Shown here one piece after another: positions 4,646 through 45,292 of a stretch of 47,856 bases of DNA (position 1 is the stretch's first letter; each line of letters opens with the position of its first letter). This DNA comes from an uncultured Alphaproteobacteria bacterium (GTDB lineage: Bacteria > Pseudomonadota > Alphaproteobacteria > RF32 > CAG-239). The stretch spans positions 1 through 47,856 of the forward strand of contig CALXWC010000013.1 of the NCBI GenBank assembly GCA_944392265.1. Direction: 5' to 3'. The notes beneath the pieces were generated by a model. The model saw nothing but the letters and a program-made list of their open reading frames with translations. It did no database searches and was not told where the DNA came from. Position numbers and translations under genes: made by a program.

Positions 4646-5191
4646 TTATTTTTTGGTAAAAATAACCACTTCATAAATACCGTCTTTTGCCACAATTTGA
4701 GTTTTCTCACTCTCACCAAACACCGAGTTAAAAAGATTGGATTTGTCTTTTTTTCTTTTGGTAAATCTTGTATCTGCATATTCAGTTGCAGATTGAGATG
4801 ATTCATTTACCGTGTTTTTTCTAATGACTATTTTATTCCCCGCCGATAAAGATAAAGGAATCACAGAAGATTCTGAGGGTTTCAAGAACCATTCATATCC
4901 ATCTGCACCAACAACTATTTGATATTTACCGATGGTGTTAGTCATTCGAGTATAAGACTTTTCAATAACGGCCACTTTTTCGTTTGGATCATTTTCTTTA
5001 ACTTGCATCAGAAAAATTTTATACTGAATTTCTTGTACAAATTGCATAATAGATTTTCTGACTTTGTAACCTCCGAAATACCAAACGGCAATCAGAACAA
5101 TACAAGCAAAAACAATAAATTTCCAAGAAAAAGCAAAAAGCAAAATCACTGCAACAATGGCTAAAAGCCAATAAATTTTTTTGTTCTTCAT
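4646..5191 (-). CDS. Family-A membrane protein A1 (two TM helices plus C-terminal beta-rich domain), unknown function
   Basis: 181 residues from the ATG at 5191. Two adjacent N-terminal transmembrane segments (about 7-24 and 27-45: IYWLLAIVAVILLF ... VLIAVWYFGG) are followed by a charged linker and a soluble, probably cytoplasmic domain. It is a paralogue of the proteins at 6734-7180 and 8550-9002. All share the SWKFIVF/SWKIVLF/SWRFFLG membrane core, a YQIVV...WFLKP-like strand and, in A1 and A3, P-x-x-S-V-I-P plus an A-G-x-x-I-x-I strand. The two-helix plus small beta-domain layout recalls NfeD-type proteins, but I cannot confirm that. It has a TTGACG/TATACA promoter and a terminator of its own, and no Shine-Dalgarno site. 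An upstream start at 5269 was rejected because it would add residues over the promoter. Confidence 0.7.
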   Translation of the reverse strand: MKNKKIYWLLAIVAVILLFAFSWKFIVFACIVLIAVWYFGGYKVRKSIMQFVQEIQYKIFLMQVKENDPNEKVAVIEKSYTRMTNTIGKYQIVVGADGYEWFLKPSESSVIPLSLSAGNKIVIRKNTVNESSQSATEYADTRFTKRKKDKSNLFNSVFGESEKTQIVAKDGIYEVVIFTKK

Positions 5192-5242
5192 AAATAAAAT
5201 AATAAAAAAGTTAAACATAAAAATTATTTCAGATATTAAATC

Positions 5243-8549: not shown

Positions 8550-9002
8550 TTAATCTACGACTTCAAAAATTTCACCTTCGGCAATAATAACCGTTTGGGT
8601 TTTAAGGCCATTTGAGGTCAAATTTCTTTCGGTTTTGATAGTTATCTCAGCTCCTGCTGTCAAAACTTCAGGAATAACAGAGTTGGAAGATGGCTTTATA
8701 AACCATTTTTTGTTATCAGCCACAATAACAAGCTGATACCAACCATGCTGTCTTGTTGATGTGACAGAAACACTTTCTACAACAACCTTTTTCTCTTCTG
8801 TTTTGAAACCATCATAGACTTGTTCTACGGTAGTTTTCGTTTGGCTGAACAAGTCCGTTAAAAAGGATTTAACTTTGTTTTCACCAAAGAAATATACTAC
8901 GGCAAGTGCCACAACAACTCCCAAAAAAAAGCGCCAAGAAAAGAGCAACAACAATACACATATTGCAATTGCAACAAGTGTATAAAATACTTTTTTATCC
9001 AT
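8550..9002 (-). CDS. Family-A membrane protein A3, unknown function
   Basis: 150 residues with two N-terminal transmembrane segments (about 5-21 and 24-41), a linker, and a soluble C-terminal domain. It shares with A1 the motifs SW+F in the second helix, WYQLVIVADNKKWFIKP, SNSVIP and LTAGAEITIK, and ends EGEIFEVVD where A1 has KDGIYEVVIF. The gene lies 17 bases downstream of B2 and should be expressed from the B2 promoter. The start ATG is preceded by AAAAATTTTTAAATT with no Shine-Dalgarno site. Function unknown. Confidence 0.7.
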   Translation of the reverse strand: MDKKVFYTLVAIAICVLLLLFSWRFFLGVVVALAVVYFFGENKVKSFLTDLFSQTKTTVEQVYDGFKTEEKKVVVESVSVTSTRQHGWYQLVIVADNKKWFIKPSSNSVIPEVLTAGAEITIKTERNLTSNGLKTQTVIIAEGEIFEVVD

Positions 9003-28937: not shown

Positions 28938-29771
28938 CTATTTCAACCAATATTCAATGGTAGAAACCACTCTGACTTTCTTTTCAATTTGAGAGGCTTC
29001 AGATGCTCCGGCAGTTTGTTCTGATGGCAAGATAGAGAAAACGCCCTGATTAGCACGTCTGATTTTTCCAACGGTAGAATTTGAGCTTTTAGCAAATTCT
29101 TGAGCTGAAGCTTCAGCATTTTTGGTTGCTTCTTCTAACATCTTAGGCTTGATATCGTTGAGTTTTGTAAACACATAAGAAACCGGTGTTGCATATTGAT
29201 TTTCAAAAACAATACCTTGAGCAATCAAACTTCCGGTTTTGCCTAAAGAACTTGCCACCAAATCAACCTTAGAAGAACGCACGGTAATTGTTTGATTCAA
29301 AATATATCTGGAAGCATTAGCCCCTTCATTACGATACGGATTAGCCATTAAATCATTGGTATTAATTGATTCAACCACAATCTCAGCATCGCTAAAGCCT
29401 TGTTCTTTCAAGAATGAAACAATCATTTGTCCTTTTTGAGCAATTTCTTGTTGAGCCAAAGACAAATCATTGTTGGTAACCACAAACTTCAAATCCCAAA
29501 CAGCCAAATCAGCTCGCACCGGCATTTCAGACAAACCTTTAACTGTCACATAGTTTGAATTCATTTTTGTTTGATAGTAATAATATCCGGGGAAGAAACC
29601 ACCGGCACACAAACCTGCTCCGATTAATAAGGCAGAAACAACGCGAGCAAAACTTTTGCAACCACATTTGCATTTTTGACCGCAAGAACATCCGCAAGTG
29701 CATGGCTTGCCCTCATTACATCCGCATTTGCAATTTTCATCGCAAGAACAAGTTTTATTCATTTCCTCCAT
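28938..29771 (-). CDS. SIMPL-domain (DUF541) protein with a metallothionein-like cytoplasmic tail
   Basis: 277 residues in three parts. Residues 1-40 contain twelve Cys in Cys-x-Cys and Cys-Gly-Cys pairs (for example KCGCNEGKPCTCGCSCG), like a metallothionein. Residues 43-66 are a transmembrane segment (VVSALLIGAGLCAGGFFPGYY). From about 75 on is a SIMPL/DUF541 domain (VTVKGLSEMPVRADLAVWDL at its start, repeated alpha/beta units, SAQEFAKSSNSTVGKI near the end). The basic CKSFAR before the helix predicts that the Cys tail is cytoplasmic and the SIMPL domain periplasmic. SIMPL proteins are periplasmic or outer-surface proteins of poorly known function, linked to oxidative stress in E. coli YggE. 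An AAGGAGA site precedes the ATG. Confidence 0.85.
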   Translation of the reverse strand: MEEMNKTCSCDENCKCGCNEGKPCTCGCSCGQKCKCGCKSFARVVSALLIGAGLCAGGFFPGYYYYQTKMNSNYVTVKGLSEMPVRADLAVWDLKFVVTNNDLSLAQQEIAQKGQMIVSFLKEQGFSDAEIVVESINTNDLMANPYRNEGANASRYILNQTITVRSSKVDLVASSLGKTGSLIAQGIVFENQYATPVSYVFTKLNDIKPKMLEEATKNAEASAQEFAKSSNSTVGKIRRANQGVFSILPSEQTAGASEASQIEKKVRVVSTIEYWLK

Positions 29772-29824: not shown

Positions 29825-31408
29825 TTATAACTTACTATTAATCATCTCTGCACATTTCAAACCATCAACAGCGGCAGACATTATTCCTCCGGCATAACCG
29901 GCACCTTCACCACATGGATATATACCTTCAACAGAGCTTTGCAAGCTTTCATCACGCTTAATTCGTATCGGAGAAGAACTTCTGCTCTCAACACCTGTTA
30001 AAACAGCATCAGGATGAGCAAAGCCATGCAACTTATTATCCATATCCAAAATTCCTGCTTTAAGCGTATCTGTCACAAAATCAGGCAAAAAAGATTTTAA
30101 GTTTGCAGGTGTCACCCCTGGGGTGTAAGATGGCTTAACTTCACCGATTTTTTTAGAATCAACAGATTTAATAAAGTCTCCAACCAATTGAATCGGTGCA
30201 AAATAATTTCTTCCTCCGCTTACAAAAGCTTTTTCTTCCAATTCTCTTTGCCAATACATTCCCTGCAACGGATGATTATCTCCGTAATCTTGAGATGAGA
30301 CACCGACCAACAAAGCCGCATTGGCATTTTCTTTGTTTCTGGCATGTTCGCTCATTCCGTTTGTTACCAATCTGTTGGGCTCTGAGGCAGCGGCAATTAC
30401 TTCTCCGCCCGGACACATACAAAATGTGAACAAAGAACGACCGTTTTTCAAATGAGAAACCATTTTATAATCAGCCGCATTCAAAAACTTTGCAAATTTT
30501 CCATATTGAGATTCATTAATAAGTTCTTGTTTATGCTCAATTCTCACACCAACGGCAAAAGCTTTTGGTTCAATAAATATGCCGGCCTGATACAACATTT
30601 CAAAAGTATCTCTGGCACTATGTCCAATTGCCAACACCAAATTTTGTGTGGCTATTTCATAAATTTGCCCTTGCGGATTTTTAACCTTTATGGCTTTAAG
30701 TTTTCCGTCTTGAACCACTATATTTTCAAGCTTATTTTGAAAACGGTATTCTCCGCCCAATTTTTCAATTTTTTGCCGTATATTTTGCACCACACGTGCC
30801 AAAATATCTGTTCCCACATGAGGCTTTGCCAAATACAAAATTTCTTCAGGAGCTCCGGCTGCAACTAATTCTGCCAAAACTTTAGAGGTATATTTGTCTT
30901 TTTTAATACCACTCATTAATTTTCCGTCAGAAAAAGTCCCGGCACCGCCTTCCCCAAATTGCACATTAGATTCCGGATTCAGATTTTCGCCGTTCCAAAA
31001 AGATTTTACATCTTTTTGGCGTTCGGGAACCGGCTTTCCTCTTTCTAAAATAATGGGCTTTAATCCGGCTTCTGCCAAGGCAATACCGGCTAACATTCCG
31101 GCCGGACCACTTCCCACAACAACCGGACGCAAAGCAGATTTTTTCTGAGGAAGATAATATTTTTCTTCAGACTTATATATTAAAATATCATATATTTTAC
31201 AAGAAGATAGAAGCTTTTCTTCATCTTCTACTTCAACATCCGTACAATATACATAATGCACATCAGACTTGCGTCTGGCATCAATAGCCTGTTTTACTAT
31301 CTTAAAAGAAAGCCAATCAGCAGACATCCCTATTTGCTCTTTAACATAAAGAGCTAAATGAGATGGCGTTATGCTCAAGGGTGCTTTAATATTATTAATT
31401 CTCAACAT
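29825..31408 (-). CDS. COG2509-type FAD-dependent dehydrogenase
   Basis: 527 residues. An N-terminal adaptor domain (1-90) precedes a two-dinucleotide-fold flavoprotein. It has the FAD-binding VVGSGPAGMLAGIALAEAG (about 95-113) with ERGKPVPERQ, then NVQFGEGGAGTFSDGKL, an NAD(P)-type LVLAIGHSARDT, and the C-terminal EGIYPCGEGAGYAGGIMSAAVDG. This order is characteristic of the uncharacterised COG2509 dehydrogenases. Substrate unknown. No partner gene within the operon is visible; the upstream and downstream genes on the strand are separated by terminators. Confidence 0.85.
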   Translation of the reverse strand: MLRINNIKAPLSITPSHLALYVKEQIGMSADWLSFKIVKQAIDARRKSDVHYVYCTDVEVEDEEKLLSSCKIYDILIYKSEEKYYLPQKKSALRPVVVGSGPAGMLAGIALAEAGLKPIILERGKPVPERQKDVKSFWNGENLNPESNVQFGEGGAGTFSDGKLMSGIKKDKYTSKVLAELVAAGAPEEILYLAKPHVGTDILARVVQNIRQKIEKLGGEYRFQNKLENIVVQDGKLKAIKVKNPQGQIYEIATQNLVLAIGHSARDTFEMLYQAGIFIEPKAFAVGVRIEHKQELINESQYGKFAKFLNAADYKMVSHLKNGRSLFTFCMCPGGEVIAAASEPNRLVTNGMSEHARNKENANAALLVGVSSQDYGDNHPLQGMYWQRELEEKAFVSGGRNYFAPIQLVGDFIKSVDSKKIGEVKPSYTPGVTPANLKSFLPDFVTDTLKAGILDMDNKLHGFAHPDAVLTGVESRSSSPIRIKRDESLQSSVEGIYPCGEGAGYAGGIMSAAVDGLKCAEMINSKL

Positions 31409-31465: not shown

Positions 31466-31497
31466 AAAAAAAGGCAATAGTATAAAAACTATTGCCT
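31466..31497 (-). terminator. Terminator of the 31496 membrane gene
   Basis: AGGCAATAGT / ACTATTGCCT perfect 10-bp stem with minus-strand T tract; overlaps the stop codon. Confidence 0.75.
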
Positions 31498-31843
31498 AAA
31501 AGATTAATCCTGTAATTACCAATGTGATTACAGCATAAAAAATGGCTTTAAAGACGCTTATCTTTAAATATTTAAAGAATAAACACAGAGCGACGATAAG
31601 TCCTAATACACCACCCCAAATGCCTAAAACGCTATTTACGGCGCCAAAGAATTCGGGAAAGATTCTGGTCCAAGAATCTGCCGGTGCGAAAAAGCAACCA
31701 TAAACGACCAAACCCAGTAATGCCCAAATCCATAAGCTTGTAGAAAACAGAATTGCAAAAACAACTTCCAACCCTTTGAAAAACAAGCACAAAAGGAGGT
31801 AAATCACCAAAAGTGCAACCGCCAAAAACAGTATTGTTTCCAT
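31496..31843 (-). CDS. Small polytopic membrane protein, unknown function (115 aa)
   Basis: Four hydrophobic segments (about 2-22, 27-50, 67-90, 95-114) with almost no soluble loops: ILFLAVALLVIYLLLCLFF, VVFAILFSTSLWIWALLG and so on. No family recognised. It has no Shine-Dalgarno site. The leader carries a nested set of inverted repeats (31862-31934). A terminator separates it from the three small membrane genes upstream on the same strand. Confidence 0.6.
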   Translation of the reverse strand: METILFLAVALLVIYLLLCLFFKGLEVVFAILFSTSLWIWALLGLVVYGCFFAPADSWTRIFPEFFGAVNSVLGIWGGVLGLIVALCLFFKYLKISVFKAIFYAVITLVITGLIF

Positions 31844-31861
31844 ACTTTTATTTTTTTAAGC

Positions 31862-31934
31862 GCAGTATTGAGGCTGTTCGATAAAATATCTACCTGTTGC
31901 CACACGTGGCAAAATACTGCAAAATAATCGCCTC
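31862..31934 (-). promoter_or_regulatory. Structured leader with nested inverted repeats
   Basis: GCAGTATT (31862-31869) pairs with AATACTGC (31913-31920). GAGGC (31870-31874) pairs with GCCTC (31930-31934), crossing the first pair. Inside lies the perfect hairpin TTGCCAC-AC-GTGGCAA (31897-31912). On the minus strand this precedes the 31496 gene and could fold into alternative structures or serve as a protein-binding site. Confidence 0.5.
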
Positions 31935-31967
31935 CATAATAATTTTTATTTAAGCCTAATATATCAC

Positions 31968-31998
31968 AAAAAAAGAGCCCAAACAAGGCTCTTTTTTT
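31968..31998 (-). terminator. Terminator of the 32010-32727 small-membrane-gene run
   Basis: AAAAAGAGCC ... GGCTCTTTTT stem with A and T tracts. Confidence 0.75.
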
Positions 31999-32009
31999 AT
32001 AATTGACGT

Positions 32010-32234
32010 CTAAAAACGCCTAAAACGAAAAATCAGATAAATAATTAAGGGTACAAATATGGCAATACTCCAGCCCCATCCAAGAAAGGTAAATACAATT
32101 TTCAATCCATAACAGAGCCAATATCCTAAAAAAGCAAATAAAAATGCCATTAGGATTATATGCCAAGAGCCCCAAAACAGCCATATCAATGCAATAACAA
32201 CAATTACATCAATCAAAATTGCAAACCAAGTCAT
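32010..32234 (-). CDS. Small membrane protein, unknown function (74 aa)
   Basis: Three hydrophobic segments over the whole length (WFAILIDVIVVIALIWLFWG, ILMAFLFAFLGYWLCYGL, WGWSIAIFVPLIIYLIF) with a basic C-terminus RFRRF. No family recognised. Last gene of a three-gene run expressed from the promoter at 32813-32840. No Shine-Dalgarno site. Confidence 0.5.
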   Translation of the reverse strand: MTWFAILIDVIVVIALIWLFWGSWHIILMAFLFAFLGYWLCYGLKIVFTFLGWGWSIAIFVPLIIYLIFRFRRF

Positions 32235-32250
32235 ACTTCAAAAATTTTTA

Positions 32251-32496
32251 TTATGACAAAATTGCCGACCATATTTTATTTGGGAAAGCCAACATAGACC
32301 TAATCATCTGATAAAAGAAGTCTTGATAATTCCAAAAAATTGCAAACAAGATGAAAGCAATTAAAATCAATATCCAAAATGTTTTTGCGGAATTAAAATT
32401 AAATTTCTCATTCACAAACTTTAGATACAGGCTTATCACCACCATAATCACCACTATGGTCATTATGACAAAAACCGCTGTTATCATAACTTTCAA
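32251..32496 (-). CDS. Small membrane protein, unknown function (81 aa)
   Basis: Two long hydrophobic segments (about 3-25 and 40-60) joined by a charged loop KFVNEKFNFNSAKTF, and a short amphipathic C-terminus. No family recognised. Middle gene of the run, 16 bases upstream of the 32010 gene. Confidence 0.5.
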   Translation of the reverse strand: MKVMITAVFVIMTIVVIMVVISLYLKFVNEKFNFNSAKTFWILILIAFILFAIFWNYQDFFYQMIRSMLAFPNKIWSAILS

Positions 32497-32520
32497 ATTT
32501 AAATATGTTACAAAATCTAT

Positions 32521-32727
32521 TTAAAAGAAGAATATTCCCATCAAAATAAAAGCAAGAATCAACCAAAGCAAAGCTTTTCTCTTGTTTCTACCGGACTCTG
32601 TAATAAAAACATACAAAGCATAAACAATAAGCACCAAAGCAATTATTGGAGACAATATGTAAAATACAATGTATAACACAGCCAAAAACAGGAACACCAA
32701 AAAAAAGATTACTTCAAACATAGGCAT
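32521..32727 (-). CDS. Small membrane protein, unknown function (68 aa)
   Basis: Two or three hydrophobic segments (FEVIFFLVFLFLAVLYIVFY, IIALVLIVYALYVFI, LLWLILAFILMGIFFF) with ESGRNKRK as the cytoplasmic loop. No family recognised. First gene of the run; a strong promoter is 85 bases upstream. No Shine-Dalgarno site. Confidence 0.5.
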   Translation of the reverse strand: MPMFEVIFFLVFLFLAVLYIVFYILSPIIALVLIVYALYVFITESGRNKRKALLWLILAFILMGIFFF

Positions 32728-43963: not shown

Positions 43964-44563
43964 ATGAAGAGTGTAAAAATTAAATCAGATCGTTTAGCAT
44001 TCAGAGATGCTAGTCTGATTCTGGGAGAAAAATTGAAGGTCGTCAAAATTTCTTTTGAGCAAGCTATGGCTTTCAGAAGAAATAAATTTTCTTCTTTTGA
44101 AGAAATGGCTGCTTATTATGGCAACCAAATTCTCAAAGAAGGAGAGTTTTACAAGGGCTACGTTGCCCTCTACCGTTCTTATAAACAAGAGGTAATATAT
44201 CTAGACGGGATATTAACGAAAGTAAAATCAGAAGGAATAAATGAGTTCTTTATGCCGTATCATGATATTCAAGCGGCAAAAGAAGGCATCCTTTGGAAGA
44301 TTGAGTATCCGGCAAACCGCAAGCAAGGCTCGTTCCGTTATGTCTGGAACTTTGGAGATTGCAGCTTTGACGCTTGGATTACTTATCTTCAAGGTCTTGG
44401 AAAACTCCCCAAAGAGGACGCCGAGAAGAAATCTGAAGGCATAAAAGAAAAGCTCATTCAGTCTTTGATTACTAATTCATCAGCTGAACTGAGTGATGAA
44501 GAATTTCTGGTGGTACAAAGCTACGCACCGGATTACTTCAGATTATTTTTTTCTGAAGTTTAA
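43964..44563 (+). CDS. Unknown soluble protein, tandem paralogue 1 (199 aa)
   Basis: No signal peptide or membrane segment. It shares with the next gene the order LKVVKISFEQAMAF, FSSFEEMAAYY, ILKEGEFYKGYVALYRS, VIYLDGILTK, GILWKIEYPA, WNFGDCSF, and a C-terminal KEKLIQSLITNSSAELSDEEF. I recognise no family. Own promoter, no Shine-Dalgarno site, own terminator: the same expression layout as the A/B/C genes. Confidence 0.65.
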   Translation: MKSVKIKSDRLAFRDASLILGEKLKVVKISFEQAMAFRRNKFSSFEEMAAYYGNQILKEGEFYKGYVALYRSYKQEVIYLDGILTKVKSEGINEFFMPYHDIQAAKEGILWKIEYPANRKQGSFRYVWNFGDCSFDAWITYLQGLGKLPKEDAEKKSEGIKEKLIQSLITNSSAELSDEEFLVVQSYAPDYFRLFFSEV

Positions 44564-44686: not shown

Positions 44687-45292
44687 ATGAAAACAATCAA
44701 AATTATTCTGCAAGATTTGGCTGTTGATAAAGCTGATTTAAGAATCGGCCATGAATTAAAAGCTCTTAAACTCTCATTTGAACAAGCCATGTCTTATGAA
44801 AAAACATTTTCTTCCTTTGAAGAAATGTGTCAACATTACCCAGATGCAAATGTGTTACAAGAAGGTGAATACTATCACGGTTATCTTTTGATATTTTATT
44901 CCGCACGACATCAACAGATTGTTTACCTCAACGGCATGTTAAACAAATGTACCGATGAAGAAAAACACCATGATGATGATATTGCCATCAGAGATGCCGC
45001 TCATAATGGAATATTATACGAAATATCCCACCCTTCTCATCATGTAAAAGGACATTGCGACAACATTTGGTCTTTTGGAAAATGTTCTTATGCATCCACT
45101 GTTGTTGAAATGCAAAGACATCAAGGCCTTTCAATAAACATTAATGCAAAAAAAACAGAAAAAAATTTGAAAGAGAAACTAAAAGCTGCTTTGCTTAACC
45201 ACTCTTTCACCTGCGAACTGACAGATGAAGAATACACCGTATTGATGCATCATTGCCCAAGCAGAAATTCTATGTTCACACTTATCGAGTAA
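44687..45292 (+). CDS. Unknown soluble protein, tandem paralogue 2 (201 aa)
   Basis: Paralogue of the preceding gene along its full length: LKALKLSFEQAMSY, FSSFEEMCQHY, VLQEGEYYHGYLLIFYS, IVYLNGMLNK, GILYEISHPS, WSFGKCSYAS, and LKEKLKAALLNHSFTCELTDEEY. It is richer in His (several HH pairs) than copy 1. Function unknown. Separate promoter and terminator suggest independent control of the two copies. Confidence 0.65.
   Translation: MKTIKIILQDLAVDKADLRIGHELKALKLSFEQAMSYEKTFSSFEEMCQHYPDANVLQEGEYYHGYLLIFYSARHQQIVYLNGMLNKCTDEEKHHDDDIAIRDAAHNGILYEISHPSHHVKGHCDNIWSFGKCSYASTVVEMQRHQGLSININAKKTEKNLKEKLKAALLNHSFTCELTDEEYTVLMHHCPSRNSMFTLIE

What the first reader, a model, noticed from the sequence alone, without database searches (positions are those of the whole stretch)
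28938..29771. Membrane-anchored metallothionein-like tail fused to a SIMPL domain
The first 40 residues hold twelve Cys in CxC and CGC arrangement, then one transmembrane helix, then a periplasmic SIMPL/DUF541 domain. SIMPL proteins usually have just a signal peptide. A Cys cluster on the cytoplasmic face next to a periplasmic stress-related domain could bind Zn, Cu or Cd, or sense metal/redox state across the membrane. I know of no described protein of this layout.
Basis: partly seen in the sequence, partly recalled or inferred. Interest (0 to 1): 0.68.

Follow-up and report, generated by a model that had tools for sequence, protein, structure and literature searches.

The report
Portable metallothionein-like tail on SIMPL protein
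A gut alphaproteobacterium carries on an ordinary membrane-anchored SIMPL protein a short cysteine-rich tail that turns out to be a 20-residue metallothionein-like module, absent from the family databases I searched, which bacteria of several phyla attach to many unrelated proteins and often keep next to copper or zinc genes, so it is probably a reusable metal-binding tag.

Summary
The ORF at 28938-29771 (-) encodes 277 aa: 12 Cys in residues 8-38, one TM segment (about 44-62) and a SIMPL domain (PF04402, E 2.7e-21). The interpretation (a metal-binding, probably cytoplasmic tail) is partly supported, but the tail is not special to SIMPL. Its core, CxC[G/D]xxCxCGC[Q/N]EGK[E/P]CTCG, is a portable module. 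A pattern scan of 84,980 species genomes found 72 stretches with it, in several phyla. It occurs as small stand-alone peptides and fused to HisRS, GrpE, RNase E/G, AqpZ, a YlbF protein, a SlyD-like FKBP, HMA copper chaperones and others. Stand-alone or HMA-linked copies lie beside CsoR-family repressors, CopA-type ATPases, a CDF exporter or ArsR. Among 103 SIMPL sequences 9 have the full module (at least three changes on the tree), 37 have 1-6 tail Cys and 57 none. Where present, no Cys codon has a non-synonymous change although TGC/TGT swaps are common. Best reading: an inner-membrane-tethered metallothionein-like tail binding Cu(I) or Zn(II) at the cytosolic face. Metal binding itself is inferred, not shown. 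No Pfam or NCBIfam model, and no open-access paper searched, covers the module.

The parts
28938..29771 (-). Complete ORF: Cys-rich N-tail + TM + SIMPL domain, 277 aa
29778..29783 (-). AAGGAG ribosome-binding site of the ORF
   Evidence: read from sequence; same spacing in orthologues
29643..29771 (-). N-terminal tail, residues 1-43, 12 Cys, predicted cytoplasmic and disordered (pLDDT under 50 for residues 1-66)
29691..29750 (-). Canonical portable module CSCDENCKCGCNEGKPCTCG (residues 8-27)
   Evidence: pattern hit; position statistics
29658..29690 (-). Second Cys-rich half CSCGQKCKCGC (residues 28-38)
29586..29642 (-). Single transmembrane/signal-anchor segment VVSALLIGAGLCAGGFFPG (residues 44-62)
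   Evidence: hydropathy; conserved in orthologues
28983..29549 (-). SIMPL (DUF541) domain, predicted periplasmic
   Evidence: PF04402; PDB relatives
29825..31408 (-). Upstream same-strand FAD-dependent protein (PF21688); neighbour, linkage not kept in most of the family

Best explanation
The protein is a member of the membrane-anchored SIMPL subfamily whose N-terminal tail carries a portable metallothionein-like module. The tail lies on the cytoplasmic side of the inner membrane and its 12 thiols bind a thiophilic metal cluster, most likely Cu(I) with Zn(II) as the alternative. This buffers or holds the metal, or protects against it, at the membrane surface, in units that can be repeated or trimmed. 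Shown here: the architecture, the homology and portability of the module, its repeated appearance in SIMPL, selection on the cysteines, and metal-homeostasis neighbours for other carriers. Inferred: cytoplasmic location (charge pattern and homologues), metal binding, which metal, and the consequence for SIMPL function.
For: Same module in unrelated proteins and as stand-alone peptides: 72 stretches in the genome scan and 27/152 family genomes, with 0 for the reversed-pattern control in the family. Positions not forced by the pattern are conserved: Q 52/73, K 54/73, E/P 57/73, T 58/73, Cys at -6 61/73 and -4 64/73. Metal context: a stand-alone copy 10 nt after a CsoR-family repressor (L127), others beside one (L086, L136), HMA+module 24 and 136 nt before a CopA-type ATPase (L118, L097), a stand-alone copy 30 nt after a CDF exporter (L069), one in an ArsR ORF (L070), a tail on an FKBP/SlyD-like protein (L132). 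The CsoR-type neighbours keep the Cys...His-x3-Cys pattern of Cu(I)-sensing CsoR (sequence; ligand rule from general knowledge). Cys codons show 0 non-synonymous changes in all 28 pairwise comparisons of eight SIMPL tails, with 1-7 synonymous ones per pair, while other positions show 1-7 non-synonymous. Tandem expansion in G024: 7.5 copies of 54 bp, 47 Cys. AqpZ C-tails in the same family show the same gradient from a few Cys to the full module.
Against: No metal gene lies beside the SIMPL gene itself, and its neighbours are not conserved. Most SIMPL orthologues lack the module, so it is dispensable for the domain's core role. The window's genome (82% complete) shows no CsoR-family repressor. 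Carriers as different as HisRS, GrpE and RNase E do not suggest one metal client. Metal binding was not measured.
Confidence: 0.62

Rival explanations
1. Trans-membrane metal or redox sensor: the cytoplasmic Cys cluster senses metal or oxidation and changes the periplasmic SIMPL assembly (or the reverse).
For: Tail and SIMPL domain are in one chain across the membrane; SIMPL proteins of the YggE type are linked to oxidative stress (NCBIfam PRK11087 weak hit).
Against: The tail is absent or short in most orthologues with the same TM and domain. The module occurs on proteins with no periplasmic domain. The tail is predicted to be disordered.
Confidence: 0.12
2. Neutral repeat expansion: a low-complexity tail that grows by replication slippage, without function.
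For: Tandem 54-bp repeats in G024; large variation of tail length between genera.
Against: Zero non-synonymous change at Cys codons while synonymous change is common; the non-Cys consensus QEGK[E/P]CTCG is shared across phyla; metal-gene neighbourhoods.
Confidence: 0.08
3. Metal-dependent clustering tag: thiolate-metal bridges between tails hold several SIMPL chains (or SIMPL and other tagged membrane proteins such as AqpZ) together at the membrane.
For: A SIMPL relative is solved as a multi-chain entry (10am, 9 chains); tagged membrane proteins AqpZ and a small TM protein occur in the same family.
Against: Many carriers are soluble; a stand-alone peptide form exists; no direct evidence.
Confidence: 0.1
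4. Cys-rich signal peptide that is removed, leaving a soluble periplasmic SIMPL protein.
For: The h-region is followed by small residues (AGG) that a signal peptidase might accept; many SIMPL proteins (YggE, BP26) are secreted (general knowledge).
Against: The segment after the TM (GFFPGYYYY) is highly conserved; no clear A-x-A site; the solved relative 10am aligns from residue 47, inside the TM; a 40-residue conserved n-region would be odd.
Confidence: 0.08

Closest known systems
SIMPL/DUF541 proteins (PF04402); solved relatives 7c50 (Campylobacter jejuni Simpl-like), 10am, 4hvz (Brucella BP26)
   Same: SIMPL domain by HMM and by fold; TM-anchored form like 10am
   Different: No Cys-rich tail known in these; here the tail holds 12 Cys
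Bacterial metallothioneins of the SmtA/BmtA type
   Same: Cys-rich, presumed thiophilic metal binding
   Different: SmtA-type MTs are folded proteins with a GATA-type zinc-finger fold (PMC10612145); this module is a short repeat with no hit to a prokaryotic metallothionein Pfam model
SlyD metal-binding C-terminal tail
   Same: Unstructured, lineage-variable, metal-binding tail on a housekeeping protein (PMC7055735); one of our carriers is itself a SlyD-like FKBP (L132)
   Different: The SlyD tail is rich in His as well as Cys and is Ni(II)-directed; here a defined Cys repeat is shared by many unrelated proteins
Mycobacterial MymT, a copper-binding bacterial metallothionein
   Same: Small Cys-rich peptide tied to copper (PMC10612145 and general knowledge)
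   Different: No shared motif was tested or is known to me; MymT is stand-alone
Eukaryotic metallothioneins with CxC repeats (Pfam Metallothio_5)
   Same: CxC spacing; one stand-alone copy gives a weak, non-significant hit (E 0.063, below cut-off)
   Different: No significant similarity

Membership tests
SIMPL/DUF541 (PF04402) | Match to the SIMPL profile above the curated cut-off | tested here: met
   77.2 bits against cut-off 25.2; fold match 7c50 E 7.9e-15
YggE oxidative-stress protein (PRK11087 equivalog) | Score above equivalog cut-off | tested here: not met
   24.3 bits against cut-off 249
SmtA-type bacterial metallothionein | Match to a prokaryotic metallothionein profile | tested here: not met
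   No metallothionein hit for the window protein at E up to 1 nor above cut-off for stand-alone copies
Metallothionein in the functional sense | Short Cys-rich sequence with CxC spacing | tested here: met
   12 Cys in residues 8-38; module consensus
Metallothionein in the functional sense | Binds several metal ions through thiolate clusters | not testable with these tools
   Needs a metal-binding assay; only indirect gene-neighbour evidence
Portable module defined here | C-x-C-G-C-x-E-G-x-x-C-x-C-G core plus unforced Q, K, E/P, T and upstream CxC | tested here: met
   CSCDENCKCGCNEGKPCTCG (N instead of Q)
SlyD-type metal tail | Tail on an FKBP-type prolyl isomerase | tested here: not met
   Host domain is SIMPL, not FKBP

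The most novel reading that the evidence does not exclude
Bacteria of several phyla share an undescribed, transferable metallothionein-type peptide (about 20 residues, tandemly expandable) that is attached again and again to housekeeping and membrane proteins, giving those proteins local Cu(I)/Zn(II) buffering; on SIMPL and AqpZ it makes an inner-membrane-tethered metallothionein.
Probability: 0.45. Interest if true: 0.75.

Novelty: new variant of a known kind. Interest (0 to 1): 0.6.

Why it matters
If the module binds metal, it is a natural, minimal, portable metallothionein domain that evolution has put on tRNA synthetase, chaperone cofactor, RNase, aquaporin and SIMPL proteins. That would make one question testable: do bacteria place metal buffers on particular proteins or at the membrane, rather than only in free metallothioneins? 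It also gives annotators a family to define, since Pfam and NCBIfam did not recognise it here.

Tried and rejected
Viral contigs: no module, so no sign of phage spread. Own genome: no second copy of the long CxCxC-x5-CxC pattern and only one SIMPL gene; the loose CxCxC pattern was too common to use. Gene neighbourhood of SIMPL: not conserved beyond close relatives except scattered nagA/nagB adjacency. Recent DNA-level copying between carriers: not supported in G132, where the two carrier modules differ clearly in codons; not tested further. Lipoprotein reading (C55 in AGLC): rejected, not a lipobox and not conserved. Literature: nothing for the peptide strings, nothing for a C. jejuni Simpl-like protein. 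AlphaFold with only 7 sequences gave a moderate model (pLDDT 65), so no claim on the tail or on oligomers. A few pattern hits look spurious or unlike the consensus (L072, L073) and were not counted as carriers.

Full report
What is there. The ORF 28938-29771 on the minus strand starts at an ATG with an AAGGAG site and encodes 277 aa. Residues 8-38 hold 12 Cys; given the 1.38% Cys of the other window ORFs this has p about 2e-13. A single hydrophobic segment (44-62) follows, then a SIMPL domain (PF04402, 75-263, E 2.7e-21). Membrane anchoring, however, is the rule in this subfamily, not the exception: orthologues across the family keep the TM and a GFFPGYYYY-like segment, and the best solved relative, 10am (9 chains, 'Periplasmic protein'), aligns from inside the TM. 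The fold also matches the C. jejuni Simpl-like protein 7c50 and Brucella BP26. Positive charges precede the TM and some Cys-free orthologues have strongly basic N-tails, so an N-in topology is the best inference.

Conservation of the tail. A search of 136 family genomes gave matches in 103 (at least one of these, G144, is a match to the Cys module alone). N-termini were then read and 103 SIMPL sequences, three of them outgroups, went into a tree. The full module is present in all 5 recovered sequences of the genus, in 3/3 of genus g6 and in one of 8 in g11. Counts by a simple cut-off just before the TM gave 37 sequences with 1-6 Cys and 57 with none. Parsimony on a quick ML tree of the domain without the tail gives 3 changes for the module. 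Direction (gain or loss) is not decided by that count, but the scattered placement suggests repeated gain. G024 carries a 7.5-copy, 54-bp tandem expansion with 47 Cys. In codon comparisons of eight tails, Cys codons show no non-synonymous change in any of 28 pairs, while TGC/TGT swaps occur in every pair and other codons change amino acid. Where present, the cysteines are maintained by selection.

The module is portable. A pattern for CxCGCxEGxxCxCG hits 27 of 152 family genomes and the reversed control none. The scan of the species-genome collection returned 72 stretches. Reading the ORFs and Pfam or NCBIfam gives these carriers: SIMPL N-tails; a small TM protein of genus g3; AqpZ C-tails; a stretch inside RNase E/G; a shorter, module-like stretch inside PFOR; HisRS C-tails in several Bacilli; GrpE N-tails; a YlbF protein in Akkermansia; HMA proteins in Propioniciclava; a SlyD-like FKBP; DUF1292 and CD1247-type proteins; and stand-alone peptides of about 49-136 aa, others with secretion signals. 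Unforced positions (Q, K, E/P, T, upstream CxC) are strongly conserved, which argues for one module rather than chance Cys-richness, although convergence under a metal-binding constraint cannot be excluded. AqpZ tails in the same family show a graded series from CRFCPCCKK to the complete module, much as SIMPL tails do.

Function. Neighbours of the stand-alone or HMA-linked copies point to metal homeostasis: a CsoR-family repressor 10 nt upstream (L127) or adjacent (L086, L136), a CopA-type P-ATPase 24 or 136 nt downstream (L118, L097), a CDF exporter 30 nt upstream (L069) or about 1.5 kb away (L120, with FeoB), and an ArsR HTH in the same ORF (L070, where an internal start may make the peptide separately). 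The CsoR-type neighbours keep a Cys...His-x3-Cys pattern, which by general knowledge is the Cu(I) ligand set. I therefore favour Cu(I), with Zn(II) next. For the SIMPL protein itself there is no metal neighbour and the window's genome shows no CsoR (incomplete genome), so the assignment there is by homology of the module. Precedent for a variable, unstructured metal-binding tail on a housekeeping protein is SlyD (PMC7055735). Known bacterial metallothioneins of the SmtA type are folded with a zinc-finger fold (PMC10612145), and the module does not match a metallothionein model above cut-off.

Verdict. The trans-membrane sensor idea has no support. Metal binding, metal identity and effect on SIMPL remain untested.

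Noticed in passing
L047, L056, L058, L236-L247 (AqpZ loci of the same family): Aquaporin Z C-tails form a graded series from CRFCPCCKK through poly-Cys to the full module; both AqpZ termini are cytoplasmic in known structures (general knowledge).
   Followed up: partly
L084, L085, L125, L135: Histidyl-tRNA synthetases of gut Bacilli MAGs end in 1-3 copies of the module.
   Followed up: partly
L038/L080 and L106, L124: Module or module-like Cys stretches lie inside RNase E/G and inside PFOR rather than at a terminus.
   Followed up: partly
L046, L048-L055, L057, L059, L060, L064, L216: A family-specific small TM protein (GMGFNELLHGCCGRCP...VIIINADGS) with module N-tail and often a His/Cys-rich C-tail; no Pfam match (L048).
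   Followed up: partly
L045, L061, L213-L215, L217, L218: Small Cys-rich N-region joined to a conserved SDKEMAFELC-type end, next to a thioredoxin-reductase-like gene in L045; no Pfam match (L045).
   Followed up: partly
L172, L176, L185, L016, L159-L192 (genera g4, g12, g14): SIMPL tails without the module are often His-rich or Arg/Phe-rich instead (HHHKHH, RPFERR), as if the tail were a fast-evolving slot.
   Followed up: no
window 31496-32727 (-): Run of four small predicted membrane proteins (115, 74, 81, 68 aa) in tandem between the FAD gene and flagellar rod genes.
   Followed up: no
window 4649-5218 and 8553-9002 (-): Two small membrane proteins with similar LLLFSWRF-type N-termini, perhaps paralogues.
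   Followed up: no
window 43964-44560 and 44687-45289 (+): Tandem similar ORFs (LSFEQAM...SFEEM), probably a duplication.
   Followed up: no
L022 and L160: SIMPL orthologues G020 and G081 matched with one in-frame TAA, possibly upstream of the true start.
   Followed up: no
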